Position numbers and translations under genes: made by a program. A DNA stretch of 5,172 nt from contig DUZB01000351.1 of the NCBI GenBank assembly GCA_013349725.1, positions 1 through 5,172 of the forward strand, in the 5' to 3' direction. Positions 2 to 5,010 of the stretch are shown here, one piece after another. Positions within the stretch are counted from its first letter, which is position 1; each line of letters begins with the position of its first letter. The notes under the pieces were generated by a model. It had not been told where the DNA came from, made no database searches, and was given only the letters and a program-made list of their open reading frames with translations. This DNA comes from Deltaproteobacteria bacterium (lineage in GTDB: Bacteria; Desulfobacterota; DSM-4660; Desulfatiglandales; Desulfatiglandaceae).

Positions 2-976
2 GAGCCGTTGGACGAGAAAAAACTGGAAGAGGCAAAGGTGGTCGTTGTGGGTGGGGCCGGCCTCGGAGATATGGAAGGTTTCGGACTTGTTCGAGAGCTT
101 GCCGCAGCAGTCGGGGGTGAAGCAGGGGCGACGAGGCCGCCTGTACTTGAACACTGGGTGGAGGAAGAACGCCTGATAGGACAGACGGGAAAAACGGTGA
201 AGCCGGACCTGCTCTTTTCCATCGGAACATCGGGTGCTGTTCAGTATACTGCGGGTATTGTGGATGCGAAAACCATTGTGGCGGTGAATCGTGATCCTCA
301 CGCGTCCATATTCCAAGTGGCCGATCTGGGGATTGTAGCGGATGCCAAGACGTTTCTTCCCCTGCTCACGGCCCGGATCAAGCAAAGCGTTATGCGCGAA
401 CTGGCGGATGTTCTGTCTGAAGACAGGGGGGCAGTATCCGGAAAAGGCCGTTTCGGTGAAAAAATCAGAAGTTTGCGAGAGGGGCATAACTGGACTGTGG
501 AAGCCCTTGCAAAAGCCACGGGGCAAACCCCGGAGTTTGTGGAGCAGGTGGAATCCGACGAGATGTCTCCACCGGTAAGTTTTCTTGTCAGCCTCTCGGG
601 AGCGCTGGGTATTGATTCCGGAACATTTCTTCATAAAGAGGAAAAGGCTGCCATCAGAGATCAGCGCGCAAAGGCCTTCTACAAGCGTACCTCAAACTAT
701 TCTTATGAGACCCTTACCCCCGGAGCGGAAAACAGCCATCTGCGTGCGTTCATGGTCACCATCGAATCCCAGCACGCCCACAAGCCGGTGGAATACAAGC
801 ATGAAGGGGAAGAGTTTATTTTCGTCATGGAAGGGGATCTTGAATTTACCCTTGGCGGGAAAGTGCACGTTCTGAAAGAAGGGGAATCCATCCATTTCAA
901 CTCGGATATCCCCCATAAACTCAAGAGCCTGTCCAATGATCCCACGAGATGTCTTGTGATGCTCTATACGGTGTAG
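2..976 (+). CDS. ETF alpha FAD-binding domain fused to XRE helix-turn-helix and cupin domain (5' partial)
   Basis: This is the C-terminal part of a fusion protein. Residues are counted from the TTG at 8; that TTG is probably internal, because the frame is open to the left edge and the ETF domain should begin upstream. Residues about 1-125 match the ETF alpha C-terminal FAD domain: VVVVGGAGLG (11-20), ATR (41-43), GQTGKTV (58-64), GTSGAVQY (73-80) and VADLGIVAD (104-112). A linker leads to an XRE-type HTH at about 148-208 (FGEKIRSLRE, then ALAKATGQTPEFVEQVE). A cupin_2 domain follows at about 245-320, with H265/E269, G276 and the second motif G292...P302-H303...N310. HTH plus cupin is a common cytoplasmic regulator architecture that binds small ligands. 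The ETF part normally holds FAD and takes electrons from acyl-CoA or other dehydrogenases. I infer a DNA-binding regulator that senses flavin, redox or a metabolite; the target is unknown. The stop is TAG at 974-976. The domain calls are firm; the combined role is not. Confidence 0.88.
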   Translation, partial: EPLDEKKLEEAKVVVVGGAGLGDMEGFGLVRELAAAVGGEAGATRPPVLEHWVEEERLIGQTGKTVKPDLLFSIGTSGAVQYTAGIVDAKTIVAVNRDPHASIFQVADLGIVADAKTFLPLLTARIKQSVMRELADVLSEDRGAVSGKGRFGEKIRSLREGHNWTVEALAKATGQTPEFVEQVESDEMSPPVSFLVSLSGALGIDSGTFLHKEEKAAIRDQRAKAFYKRTSNYSYETLTPGAENSHLRAFMVTIESQHAHKPVEYKHEGEEFIFVMEGDLEFTLGGKVHVLKEGESIHFNSDIPHKLKSLSNDPTRCLVMLYTV

Positions 977-1005
977 GGAATGGCTTTGAGGATAGAAGTC
1001 AGTCG

Positions 1006-1028
1006 TCGGAAGTCGGAAGTCGGAAGTC
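1006..1028. repeat. Heptamer tandem repeat (TCGGAAG)x3
   Basis: Three exact TCGGAAG units run from 1006 to 1026, followed by TC. The partial array is flanked by GAAGTCAG on both sides (995-1002 and 1023-1030). It starts 30 bases after the stop of the ETF/XRE/cupin gene. Seven-base arrays of this kind are typical of intergenic low-complexity repeats, and the period matches the array at 4973-5010. A minus-strand reading frame through this region is an artefact of the repeat. Confidence 0.85.
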
Positions 1029-1087
1029 AGGCGCCTGAATTCCTGGTGCAACGAAAAAAAGACCGTGAGATCCGAGCAACCTGCCTG

Positions 1088-2216: not shown

Positions 2217-3140
2217 ATGGAAAACAGGATTTTTTTTACAACAAAAGAAGTATCTCAATTTTTAAAGATAAACGAAAAAATGGTGTACACGCTCGTGGCG
2301 GAAAAAGGACTGCCTGCCACGAAGGCGACGGGGAAATGGCTCTTTCCGAAACATCTTGTGGAACAGTGGCTGGAAAACCGTACGGTAAACTATCCTAAGA
2401 TGAGCGATTCTCTTCCATCCCATCATGACCTTCTCATCATATGTGGAAGCAATGATATCCTTTTAGACAGGGCCATGTCCCTTTTTAACCAGATCTTTGA
2501 AGACCCTGTTGCCGTTTTCGGGAACTTAGGGAGCCTTGGGGGGATTCGGACGCTCAGGGAAGGAAAATGCCACATGGCTTCCAGTCATCTTCTGCAGGAT
2601 AACGGGCAGGAGTACAATTTTGGATTTGCGGAAAATGAAATGGGACAGATGCCGGGCATCATCAATTTCTGCAAAAGAGAGCAGGGCCTTCTTGTGGCGA
2701 AGGGAAACCCCGGAAAAATTCAGAATGCGGCCGATCTTGCAAAACGGGGGGTAAAGGTGGTCAACCGACCGCTTGGCACGGGAACCCGCCTGTTGTTTGA
2801 TGGCGAATTGCAGAAGGCGGGCCTGGAAGGCTCGCGGATCAAAGGGTATGACCGGGAGGTGTCCCGCCATCTCGATGTGGGGCTGGAGGTGCTCTCCGGT
2901 CGCGCCGATGCCGGTCCCGGGATCCGGGCCGTCGCGGGGCTTCTTGACCTGGATTTTTTGCACCTTCGCTGGGAGCGTTTCGATTTTCTCATACAGAAGG
3001 CCAGGTTTTTTGAGAAAAGTGTGCAACTGTTTTTGAATTTCCTTTCGGATAAGGCCTTCAGAGCCATGGCTCAGGATCTGGAGGGATACGATCTGGAACT
3101 CTGCGGCAAGATGGTTTTCCCCATGGAGCCTGCCATATGA
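2217..3140 (+). CDS. One-component regulator: excisionase-type HTH plus PBP-like (molybdate-binding-like) domain
   Basis: This 307-residue protein has no signal peptide and is therefore cytoplasmic. Residues about 4-52 are a MerR/excisionase-type HTH (FFTTKEVSQFLKINEKMVYT, then ATGKWLFPKHLVEQWL). Residues about 71-297 match the PBP-like domain of PF12727/COG1910, a cytoplasmic relative of periplasmic molybdate-binding proteins also found attached to MoeA-like proteins. Family motifs seen are GSLGGI (105-110), HLLQDNGQEYN (124-134), REQGLLVAKGNP (154-165), NRPLGTGTR (183-191), GYDREVSRH (210-218) and SGRADAGPGI (227-236). I infer a ligand-responsive regulator; the ligand could be molybdate, tungstate or another small anion, and this is not settled by sequence. 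Its stop overlaps the MFS start, so it probably controls that transporter. ATG at 2217 is the only sensible start: GGAG abuts it with no spacer, and a G6 run (2202-2207) 9 bases upstream may serve as a poor ribosome site. A T8 tract (2230-2237) lies in codons 5-7. Confidence 0.87.
   Translation: MENRIFFTTKEVSQFLKINEKMVYTLVAEKGLPATKATGKWLFPKHLVEQWLENRTVNYPKMSDSLPSHHDLLIICGSNDILLDRAMSLFNQIFEDPVAVFGNLGSLGGIRTLREGKCHMASSHLLQDNGQEYNFGFAENEMGQMPGIINFCKREQGLLVAKGNPGKIQNAADLAKRGVKVVNRPLGTGTRLLFDGELQKAGLEGSRIKGYDREVSRHLDVGLEVLSGRADAGPGIRAVAGLLDLDFLHLRWERFDFLIQKARFFEKSVQLFLNFLSDKAFRAMAQDLEGYDLELCGKMVFPMEPAI
3125..3128 (+). promoter_or_regulatory. Shine-Dalgarno site inside the regulator gene, for the MFS gene
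   Basis: GGAG lies 8 bases before the ATG at 3137, inside the last codons of the regulator. Together with the ATGA overlap (3137-3140) it supports coupled translation of regulator and transporter, and it decides the start of the transporter. Confidence 0.6.
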
Positions 3141-4477
3141 GTGAGGCATCGAGGGAAAACCGTTATCCGCCGGCCTTTCAGTCCTGGCTGGTCTGGGGAC
3201 TTGGCGCCGCTTTCTATTGTTCCGGCTTTTACCAGCGGGTTGCTCCTGCCGTGATTACGGACCACCTGATGGCTGATTTCAGCATGGGGGCCGCTGAACT
3301 GGGCAGCTTTTCCGCCTTCTATTTCTACAGTTATTTCCTGATGCAGGTGCCCACAGGGATTTTAGCGGATCGATGGGGTCCCAGGAAGTTGCTTGCCGCG
3401 GGGGCTTTTGTTGCCGCGTTGGGGACCTTTTTCTTTGCTTTGGGGCAATCCATTTTTATGGCAAATCTGGGCAGGCTGCTCATTGGCGGTTCCGTGGGGG
3501 TTGCTTTCGTGTCGCTGTTGAAGCTTTCAACGCACTGGTTCCCCCCCCAGCGGTTTGCCATGACCAGTGGGTTGGCTCTGTGTTTCGGGCTTGTGGGCGC
3601 CGTTACGGCCGGAGCGCCGCTGAGGTTTCTGGTTGAGCAATTCGGGTGGCGATCGGTCATGTTTGTTTCCGCTGTTCTTGCTTCGGCGCTTACCGTGGCC
3701 ATCTGGGTGTACGTCAGGGATGATCCCGGGGAAAAAGGGTATAAAAGCTTTGTTTCGAAATCGGGTTCGGATCATCGCTCCGCGTCCCAGATCTTTTCCG
3801 GTCTGCTCACTGTCCTTAGATACAAAAATACCTGGGTGATATCCCTGGCGCCCTCGGGAATTGCCGGCCCTCTGTTAGCTTTTTCGGGTTTGTGGGGTGT
3901 TTCCTACCTGATAGCCCGGTATGGCCTGACGCACGCTGAGAGCGCTGGGATTACGTCTCTTCTCCTGGTGACCTGGGGCCTGGGAGGGCCTGTGTTAGGG
4001 GGGCTGTCCGACAGGCTGCGCAGGAGAAAAGCGCTATACCTTGCAGGACTCATCGTGTCATCGGCAGGATGGATCAGCATCATCTACCTTCCGGAACTGT
4101 CCGTCTGGGCCTTTACGGTCATCCTGGCCATTGTGGGGTTCGCTTCGGGATCCATGATTATCGGCTTTGCCTTTGCAAAGGAGTCCGTGCCTCCATCTCT
4201 GGCAGGAACGGTTTCAGGGGTCTGCAATATGGGTGTGATGCTGGGCCCCATGATTCTGCAACCCCTGATTGGCTGGGCGCTGGATCGAAACTGGACCGGA
4301 TTGACGGAGAATGGAATCAGGGTGTATGAAAGGGGCGCCTATGACTGGGCATTCGCACTGATGGTTGTCTGGTCTGTTTTAGGCTCGGTGTTGATGCTCT
4401 TCAGTACCGATACGCAGTGCAGACAGATGGTTCAGGAAGCACCGGTCCAACCGGAGTCGAAGGAAAAAGCAGGATAG
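3137..4477 (+). CDS. MFS transporter, 12 transmembrane helices
   Basis: This is an intact 446-residue major facilitator superfamily permease, in the usual length range. Predicted helices lie at about 15-35, 53-76, 85-104, 107-130, 140-163, 170-192, 233-260, 267-290, 298-316, 321-345, 352-383 and 402-423, with a cytoplasmic loop at about 193-230. MFS motif A is clear after helix 2 (GILADRWGPRK, 74-84) and recurs in the second half (GGLSDRLRRRK, 288-298). YFYSYFLMQVPTG (62-74) resembles permeases of the sugar-phosphate or organic-anion type, but the substrate cannot be named. The start overlaps the regulator stop by four bases (ATGA), which indicates translational coupling and a likely sensor/transporter pair. 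The YdjM-family gene starts 27 bases downstream. A C8 run at 3541-3548 (codons F135-P136-P137-Q138) stays in frame here. The C-terminal tail (about 424-446) is polar and cytoplasmic. Confidence 0.92.
   Translation: MSEASRENRYPPAFQSWLVWGLGAAFYCSGFYQRVAPAVITDHLMADFSMGAAELGSFSAFYFYSYFLMQVPTGILADRWGPRKLLAAGAFVAALGTFFFALGQSIFMANLGRLLIGGSVGVAFVSLLKLSTHWFPPQRFAMTSGLALCFGLVGAVTAGAPLRFLVEQFGWRSVMFVSAVLASALTVAIWVYVRDDPGEKGYKSFVSKSGSDHRSASQIFSGLLTVLRYKNTWVISLAPSGIAGPLLAFSGLWGVSYLIARYGLTHAESAGITSLLLVTWGLGGPVLGGLSDRLRRRKALYLAGLIVSSAGWISIIYLPELSVWAFTVILAIVGFASGSMIIGFAFAKESVPPSLAGTVSGVCNMGVMLGPMILQPLIGWALDRNWTGLTENGIRVYERGAYDWAFALMVVWSVLGSVLMLFSTDTQCRQMVQEAPVQPESKEKAG

Positions 4478-4972: not shown

Positions 4973-5010
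<38 letters not shown>

What the first reader, a model, noticed from the sequence alone, without database searches (positions are those of the whole stretch)
2..976. ETF alpha FAD domain fused to an XRE-cupin regulator: candidate flavin/redox-sensing transcription factor
One uninterrupted frame joins an electron-carrier FAD domain to a DNA-binding domain and a cupin sensor. ETF alpha normally works as an electron shuttle with ETF beta; XRE-cupin proteins are regulators of metabolic genes. The fusion suggests that the FAD redox state, or docking to a dehydrogenase or ETF beta, is read out as DNA binding, with the cupin adding a second metabolite input. The domains are seen in the sequence; the sensing role is inference.
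Basis: partly seen in the sequence, partly recalled or inferred. Interest (0 to 1): 0.75.

Follow-up and report, generated by a model that had tools for sequence, protein, structure and literature searches.

The report
Electron-transfer flavoprotein fused to gene regulator
In many sulfate-reducing and related bacteria, one subunit of an electron-carrying enzyme that sits in an operon with a fatty-acid-type dehydrogenase carries a DNA-binding and metabolite-sensing module in the same protein chain, so the enzyme may report its own activity to its genes; this is inferred from sequence and has not been tested.

Summary
The fusion is real. Window 2-976 is the last 324 residues of a ~540-residue protein: complete ETF alpha (N-domain plus FAD domain), XRE helix-turn-helix, cupin. 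It is a conserved family: the 120 listed homologues (of 2046) all carry the FAD and cupin domains, and 79 loci were fetched, two from records titled complete genomes. On the same strand, etfB lies within 1.5 kb upstream in 71 of 73 loci with enough DNA, an acyl-CoA dehydrogenase gene in 61 of 66: operon acd-etfB-etfA~XRE-cupin. The ETF part is closest to bifurcating ETFs; all 72 EtfB partners examined have D-x-D-x-x-[QH]-V-G. A near unfused XRE-cupin exists in 10 of 11 fusion-bearing genomes, mostly heading a second acd gene. I read it as a regulator of acyl-CoA dehydrogenase genes captured by EtfA, probably once, giving an electron carrier that also reports to DNA (PutA-like). Shown: fusion, operon, conservation. 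Inferred: electron transfer, DNA binding, signal, redox coupling. Against: the fused HTH is on average more acidic than the unfused one, and no operator was established.

The parts
2..976 (+). 3' end (324 codons plus stop) of the etfA~XRE-cupin gene; full protein about 539 aa
   Evidence: open frame; P0001 99% identical over 100% of the query, 539 aa
2..391 (+). FAD-binding (shuttle) domain of ETF alpha; the Tyr codon at 245-247 sits where four bifurcating ETFs of known structure have His
   Evidence: PF00766 at aa 7-86; Tyr in 69, Phe in 5 of 74 aligned fusions; His in 4kpu, 5ol2, 7koe, 6fah and Phe in 7qh2 in the alignments
392..451 (+). linker between FAD domain and HTH, the least conserved part; 18-23 residues in 67 of 74, 31-42 in 7 Desulfamplus loci
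   Evidence: mean frequency of the commonest residue 0.42, 0 of 20 positions at 95%; lengths
452..631 (+). XRE-type helix-turn-helix
   Evidence: HTH_3 PF01381; mean frequency of the commonest residue 0.66 in 74 rows
698..973 (+). cupin domain; conserved Tyr 794-796, His 800-802, Glu 812-814, His 914-916 (P0001 Y480, H482, E486, H520)

Best explanation
A bifunctional electron carrier and regulator. The protein is the alpha subunit of a bifurcating-type ETF that works with the EtfB and the short-chain-type acyl-CoA dehydrogenase encoded just before it. Its C-terminal XRE-cupin module descends from a regulator that normally controls acyl-CoA dehydrogenase genes. It probably feeds back on its own acd-etfB-etfA operon (and perhaps other acyl-CoA genes): a ligand of the cupin, and possibly the state of the ETF complex, set DNA binding. 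The module hangs by a short linker from the mobile FAD shuttle domain, so docking of that domain to EtfB or the dehydrogenase could expose or hide it. Shown by sequence: fusion, operon, conserved FAD-domain and cupin residues, unfused regulator-acd pairs, a tree compatible with one fusion. Inferred: activity as an ETF, metal and ligand binding, DNA binding, autoregulation, and any coupling to flavin state.
For: Operon: etfB in 71 of 73, acd in 61 of 66 loci with enough upstream DNA (list); in the 52 loci where gene calls show the three genes side by side the median gaps are 32 and 26 nt. EtfA part best in PDB to 4kpu, 5ol2, 7koe, 6fah (E 1.6e-49 to 1.5e-48), 7qh2 1.6e-38, human ETF 4.9e-28 (one query). 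EtfB of L009 best to 5ol2, 7qh2, 6fah, 7koe, 4kpu. Acd of L031 best to 5ol2_C of the C. difficile complex, but closely followed by ordinary short-chain dehydrogenases. EtfB motif D-x-D-x-x-[QH]-V-G in 72 of 72, Q in 57 and H in 15. T259, R260, Q276, T277, G278, S292, Q296 of the FAD domain in 74 of 74. Unfused XRE-cupin in 10 of 11 fusion-bearing genomes that I chose; acd downstream on the same strand in 9 of the 10 nearest and 8 of 8 in further genomes. Tree: 74 fused rows on one side of one branch, support 76/89, 71% of 200 bootstrap trees. Shuttle-domain movement with NAD(H) and reduction in T. maritima EtfAB: PMC10765413, abstract and passages.
Against: HTH net charge: fused mean -1.6 (n 74, range -6 to 5), unfused near relatives +1.0 (n 21, -6 to 6), more distant XRE-cupins +2.0 (n 8, 0 to 5); region 389-407: -3.1, -1.0, -1.4. 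The ranges overlap. Palindrome search upstream of 55 operons: above all three shuffles at widths 15, 18, 19, level at 22, not above at 14, with more starts given to the real set than to the shuffles, and sites scattered. The clearest shared element is a sigma-70-like promoter in 20 of 55. The variable linker argues against a rigid lever. The unfused XRE-cupin persists in 10 of 11 genomes, so the fusion did not replace it. No curated NCBIfam subunit model is reached for EtfA, EtfB or Acd, so the substrate is unknown.
Confidence: 0.5

Rival explanations
1. Working ETF alpha whose XRE-cupin tail no longer binds DNA and now serves as a ligand-binding, dimerising or docking domain of the enzyme complex (enzyme-level control or scaffolding).
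For: More acidic HTH on average than in unfused relatives; cupin more conserved than HTH, 0.78 against 0.66; no operator established.
Against: The HTH is not decaying: in the turn and recognition helix G389 is kept in 66, P392 in 69, E or D at 393 in 71 and F394 in 67 of 74. An acidic residue at 393 is also usual in the unfused relatives, 16 of 21, so it does not by itself mean loss of DNA binding.
Confidence: 0.27
2. Dedicated flavin/redox sensor: the ETF part has given up electron transfer and only senses.
For: The His at one flavin-site position is Tyr or Phe in 74 of 74, while the three unfused relatives examined keep His. L059 and L062 lack etfB nearby.
Against: Complete ETF alpha with invariant FAD-domain residues and conserved etfB and acd in the operon. 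Phe occurs at the same place in 7qh2, the lactate dehydrogenase ETF (alignment), so losing this His need not mean losing function.
Confidence: 0.1
3. The HTH-cupin tail is an enzyme, as in hydroxypropylphosphonate epoxidase (HppE), which has the same HTH plus cupin layout.
Against: Sequence similarity to HppE is weak (E about 0.004); unfused relatives precede acd genes like regulators; the same three residues are in 8 of 8 more distant XRE-cupins, and many plain cupins score as high by fold.
Confidence: 0.05

Closest known systems
Butyryl-CoA dehydrogenase/EtfAB complex of C. difficile (PDB 5ol2) and other bifurcating ETFs (4kpu, 6fah CarCDE, 7koe, 7qh2)
   Same: Gene set acd, etfB, etfA; best sequence matches in the PDB for the one EtfA, one EtfB and one Acd queried; EtfB motif close to theirs (alignments)
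   Different: Their EtfA chains are 331-418 residues and match only the ETF part of the query, so they have no XRE-cupin tail; Tyr/Phe instead of His at one flavin-site position, except 7qh2 (Phe)
XRE-cupin one-component regulators (PuuR-type; PDB 1y9q, 6b8w)
   Same: HTH plus C-terminal cupin in the same order; 1y9q is the best PDB match of this part by sequence
   Different: Fused to a full ETF alpha; PuuR model matched at 38-41 bits against a cut-off of 211, so not PuuR; HTH more acidic than in the unfused relatives
PutA (proline dehydrogenase and repressor of the put operon); 'trigger enzymes'
   Same: An enzyme that is also a direct transcriptional repressor (PutA passage in PMC6978683); that it is a flavoenzyme with a redox switch is recalled
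   Different: Folds unrelated (recalled); here the carrier subunit of a multi-subunit complex with an added cupin; regulation untested
BzdR of Azoarcus
   Same: A DNA-binding domain joined by a linker to an enzyme fold, controlling anaerobic benzoate genes (abstract of PMC3602430); that the domain is XRE-type is recalled
   Different: In BzdR the enzyme activity was lost (abstract); here the enzyme part keeps its conserved residues and operon partners

Membership tests
ETF alpha (PF01012 + PF00766) | both domains, in order | tested here: met
   P0001: PF01012 9-200 and PF00766 222-301, both above cut-off
ETF alpha (PF01012 + PF00766) | conserved FAD-domain residues | tested here: met
   T259, R260, Q276, T277, G278, S292, Q296 in 74 of 74; that they contact FAD is recalled. 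Exception: His to Tyr/Phe at 297 in 74 of 74
Bifurcating-type ETF/acyl-CoA dehydrogenase complex | etfB and acd genes with etfA, and the QVG-type EtfB motif of bifurcating ETFs | tested here: met
   etfB 71 of 73, acd 61 of 66; D-x-D-x-x-[QH]-V-G in 72 of 72, 15 of them with H. A first pattern that demanded Q matched 56 of 73. That canonical ETFs lack the motif is recalled, not tested
Bifurcating-type ETF/acyl-CoA dehydrogenase complex | NADH- and ferredoxin-linked bifurcation, two FADs | not testable with these tools
   needs the purified complex
XRE-cupin regulator | XRE HTH plus Cupin_2 above family cut-offs | tested here: met
   P0001: HTH_3 29.8 (cut-off 23), Cupin_2 60.4 (cut-off 27.2)
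XRE-cupin regulator | binds DNA and controls transcription | not testable with these tools
   indirect signs conflict: conserved recognition helix, more acidic HTH, no operator established
PuuR | NCBIfam NF007408 cut-off 211 bits | tested here: not met
   39.6 bits for the window; 37.9 for P0001 and 41.1 for P0044
HppE-like HTH-cupin enzyme | fold and metal-ligand residues | tested here: inconclusive
Trigger enzyme (PutA-like) | one chain with enzymatic and gene-regulatory activity | not testable with these tools
   domain content fits; neither activity tested

The most novel reading that the evidence does not exclude
An electron-bifurcating ETF complex that is itself a one-component transcription switch: the position of the mobile FAD shuttle domain (set by NADH/NAD+, flavin state and acyl-CoA supply) frees or hides the tethered XRE-cupin pairs, so the balance of electron flow through acyl-CoA metabolism is written directly onto promoters, with the cupin as a second metabolite input.
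Probability: 0.25. Interest if true: 0.88.

Novelty: new variant of a known kind. Interest (0 to 1): 0.62.

Why it matters
How anaerobes that oxidise fatty acids match acyl-CoA dehydrogenase and ETF levels to their redox state is poorly understood (my general knowledge). A carrier subunit with a built-in regulator module in the same operon would be a direct, testable link. Unfused regulator-acd pairs, unfused acd-etfB-etfA operons and the fusion all occur in genomes related to one another, a natural series for studying how an enzyme captures a regulator.

Tried and rejected
Assembly join or frameshift: rejected for the family. The four-domain content recurs in the listed homologues, the order in 25 and 74 aligned proteins, and L038 and L064 come from records titled complete genomes. 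Two single copies look interrupted: L057 (stops) and G146/L131, where the two etfA pieces overlap and lie in different frames.

Operator search: a free motif search gave a sigma-70-like element TTGACtC...TGATAG, 20 of 55 at width 28 (score 200 against 97 for one mononucleotide shuffle that was given fewer starts). Palindrome-constrained search: 38.8 at width 14 (shuffles 27.7-41.0), 47.8 at 15 (39.7-41.8), 55.9 at 18 (35.2-44.3), 51.5 at 19 (39.9-44.1), 56.5 at 22 (44.4-56.2); real data had 80 starts, shuffles 40. Six loci of 61 were dropped as redundant before both runs, and acd start codons were estimated. Not accepted as an operator.

Longest-ORF gene calling mis-called several GC-rich loci; counts were redone with tblastn.

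Downstream neighbours: no widely shared gene. The commonest cluster within 5 kb downstream is a PHP-domain gene, 10 places, the next 6; the window's four downstream genes share no cluster with the other loci.

Row drops: of 79 loci, L057 (stops) and 5 with under 480 residues were left out of the family alignment; 73 plus P0001 remain. Tree: the bootstrap had not settled (correlation 0.959), long branches meet and the near unfused group is unresolved, so one origin is likely, not proven.

Literature: searches joining ETF with cupin, XRE or HTH terms listed no paper, except one; one search listed two. These three were judged unrelated from title and start of abstract only. The library lacks most subscription journals. 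In PMC6085437 'cupin', 'fusion' and 'fused' occur zero times in the main text.

Structure: mean pLDDT 79.7 but pTM 0.44, so domain arrangement is not predicted; no complex was modelled.

Full report
What is in the window. Bases 2-976 on the + strand are one open frame of 324 codons plus stop that runs off the left edge. Pfam finds the ETF alpha FAD-binding domain, an XRE-type HTH and a Cupin_2 domain, each above its cut-off. A 99%-identical database protein, P0001, is 539 aa and adds the missing ETF alpha N-domain PF01012.

How common it is. The protein search gave 2046 hits at E <= 1e-3 among 7998 scored candidates. Only the best 120 are listed: all 120 carry PF00766 and PF07883, 118 an HTH family and 112 also PF01012 (the other 8 are 301-414 aa, my reading). 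A genome scan gave 219 confirmed stretches, of which 79 distinct loci were kept. Most are titled Deltaproteobacteria, Desulfobacterales, Desulfobacteraceae or a Desulfo- genus; a few are titled Myxococcota, Nitrospirota, Fibrobacterota or Proteobacteria, and some of these labels may be mis-binning. In 147 genomes sampled evenly from the class of G001, 27 matched at E <= 1e-60; by the match table 24 look like fusions (two of them through partial matches, one through two pieces of one frame) and 3 are unfused ETF alphas with frames of 336-356 aa at 37-38% identity. One of the 24, G146, has its ETF pieces in different frames.

Its operon. With more than 900 nt upstream, etfB is found within 1.5 kb on the same strand in 71 of 73 loci; with more than 2400 nt, an acyl-CoA dehydrogenase gene precedes in 61 of 66. 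Exceptions: no etfB for L059 and L062; no acd for L016, L020, L062, L066, L069. L016 has a masked run of N in its etfB. In the 52 loci where gene calls show all three side by side, the median gaps are 32 nt (acd-etfB, -26 to 356) and 26 nt (etfB-etfA, -5 to 277). The best PDB match of one EtfA, one EtfB and one Acd from the family is in each case a bifurcating ETF or its complex (4kpu and 5ol2 nearly tied for EtfA; 5ol2 for EtfB and Acd); for Acd, ordinary short-chain dehydrogenases follow closely. The EtfB motif that reads IDGDTAQVGP in 5ol2 is present as D-x-D-x-x-[QH]-V-G in 72 of 72 fusion-linked EtfB, with Q in 57 and H in 15. NCBIfam's best models (acryloyl-CoA reductase subunits for EtfA and Acd, NF040731 for EtfB) stay far below their cut-offs, so the substrate is open. 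Bifurcation itself is untested.

The flavin site. Seven positions of the FAD domain that I recall as part of the FAD site are invariant in 74 of 74 aligned fusions. The His that follows Gln296 in 4kpu, 5ol2, 7koe and 6fah (alignments) is Tyr in 69 and Phe in 5. The three unfused relatives examined keep His. 7qh2, a lactate dehydrogenase ETF, has Phe there, so the change is compatible with function; that it tunes the flavin is inference (the role of this His is recalled).

The XRE-cupin module. Its near relatives are unfused XRE-cupins with frames of 187-206 aa. Of 11 fusion-bearing genomes that I chose, 10 have one; G009 has only the fusion. Of the ten nearest, nine (L081-L089) are followed on the same strand, after 15 to 315 nt, by another acyl-CoA dehydrogenase gene; the tenth (L080, the same gene as in L058) points away from the fused cassette's own acd; a second, more distant copy in G008 (L091) has no acd in 3.5 kb. 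In 10 further genomes, 8 have such a gene at E <= 1e-30 and all 8 are followed by acd. Unfused copies beside fusions in L022 and L062 also precede an acd gene. In L129 an unfused acd-etfB-etfA operon lies back to back with an XRE-cupin-acd pair. This is the arrangement expected of a regulator of acyl-CoA dehydrogenase genes, and a plausible source of the fusion. The tree puts all 74 fused modules on one side of one branch (support 76/89; 71% of 200 bootstrap trees), but the bootstrap had not settled and long branches meet.

How it most likely works. The protein most likely carries electrons in an Acd-EtfAB complex and also feeds back on gene expression through its XRE-cupin tail. The tail is tied to the FAD shuttle domain, the part that moves between states; in T. 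maritima EtfAB that movement depends on NAD(H) and reduction (PMC10765413, abstract and passages). Whether the tail follows that movement is unknown, and the variable linker (18-23 residues in 67 of 74, 31-42 in 7) speaks for tethering rather than a rigid lever. The comparison with PutA rests on one passage in PMC6978683 and on recall; that with BzdR on the abstract of PMC3602430.

Verdict. A real, conserved fusion that I did not find described in the library searched (open-licence papers only). It is a new variant of a known kind, the enzyme with a built-in regulator, with the regulatory half still to be tested.

Noticed in passing
window 2217-3140 and 3137-4477: HTH_17 plus PBP_like (PF12727) regulator whose frame overlaps the start of an MFS transporter by 4 bases: a likely regulator-transporter pair.
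   Followed up: no
window 995-1030 and 4973-5010: Two short arrays of 7-base units outside the main genes, GTCGGAA (within 1005-1028) and GTTTCCA (5.4 copies).
   Followed up: no
L081-L089, L132-L139: Unfused XRE-cupin gene followed on the same strand by an acyl-CoA dehydrogenase gene in 17 of 17 of these loci: an apparently widespread regulator-enzyme pair.
   Followed up: partly
L129:3625-8655: Unfused acd-etfB-etfA operon back to back with an XRE-cupin-acd pair, an arrangement that could precede the fusion.
   Followed up: partly
EtfB of L007, L013, L016, L017, L024, L027, L060, L061, L063, L065, L066, L067, L068, L069, L078: The Gln of the EtfB QVGP motif is His in these 15; meaning unknown.
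   Followed up: no
L057:4063-5684: The fused frame stops after 507 codons, within the cupin part, so this copy may be truncated or mis-assembled.
   Followed up: no
L131:7193-8819 (G146): The two etfA pieces overlap and lie in different frames before the XRE-cupin part: an interrupted copy or an assembly error.
   Followed up: no
L016 (titled Nitrospirota): Its fused module pairs with a Desulfatiglandales sequence in the tree (99/64): transfer or a mis-binned contig.
   Followed up: no
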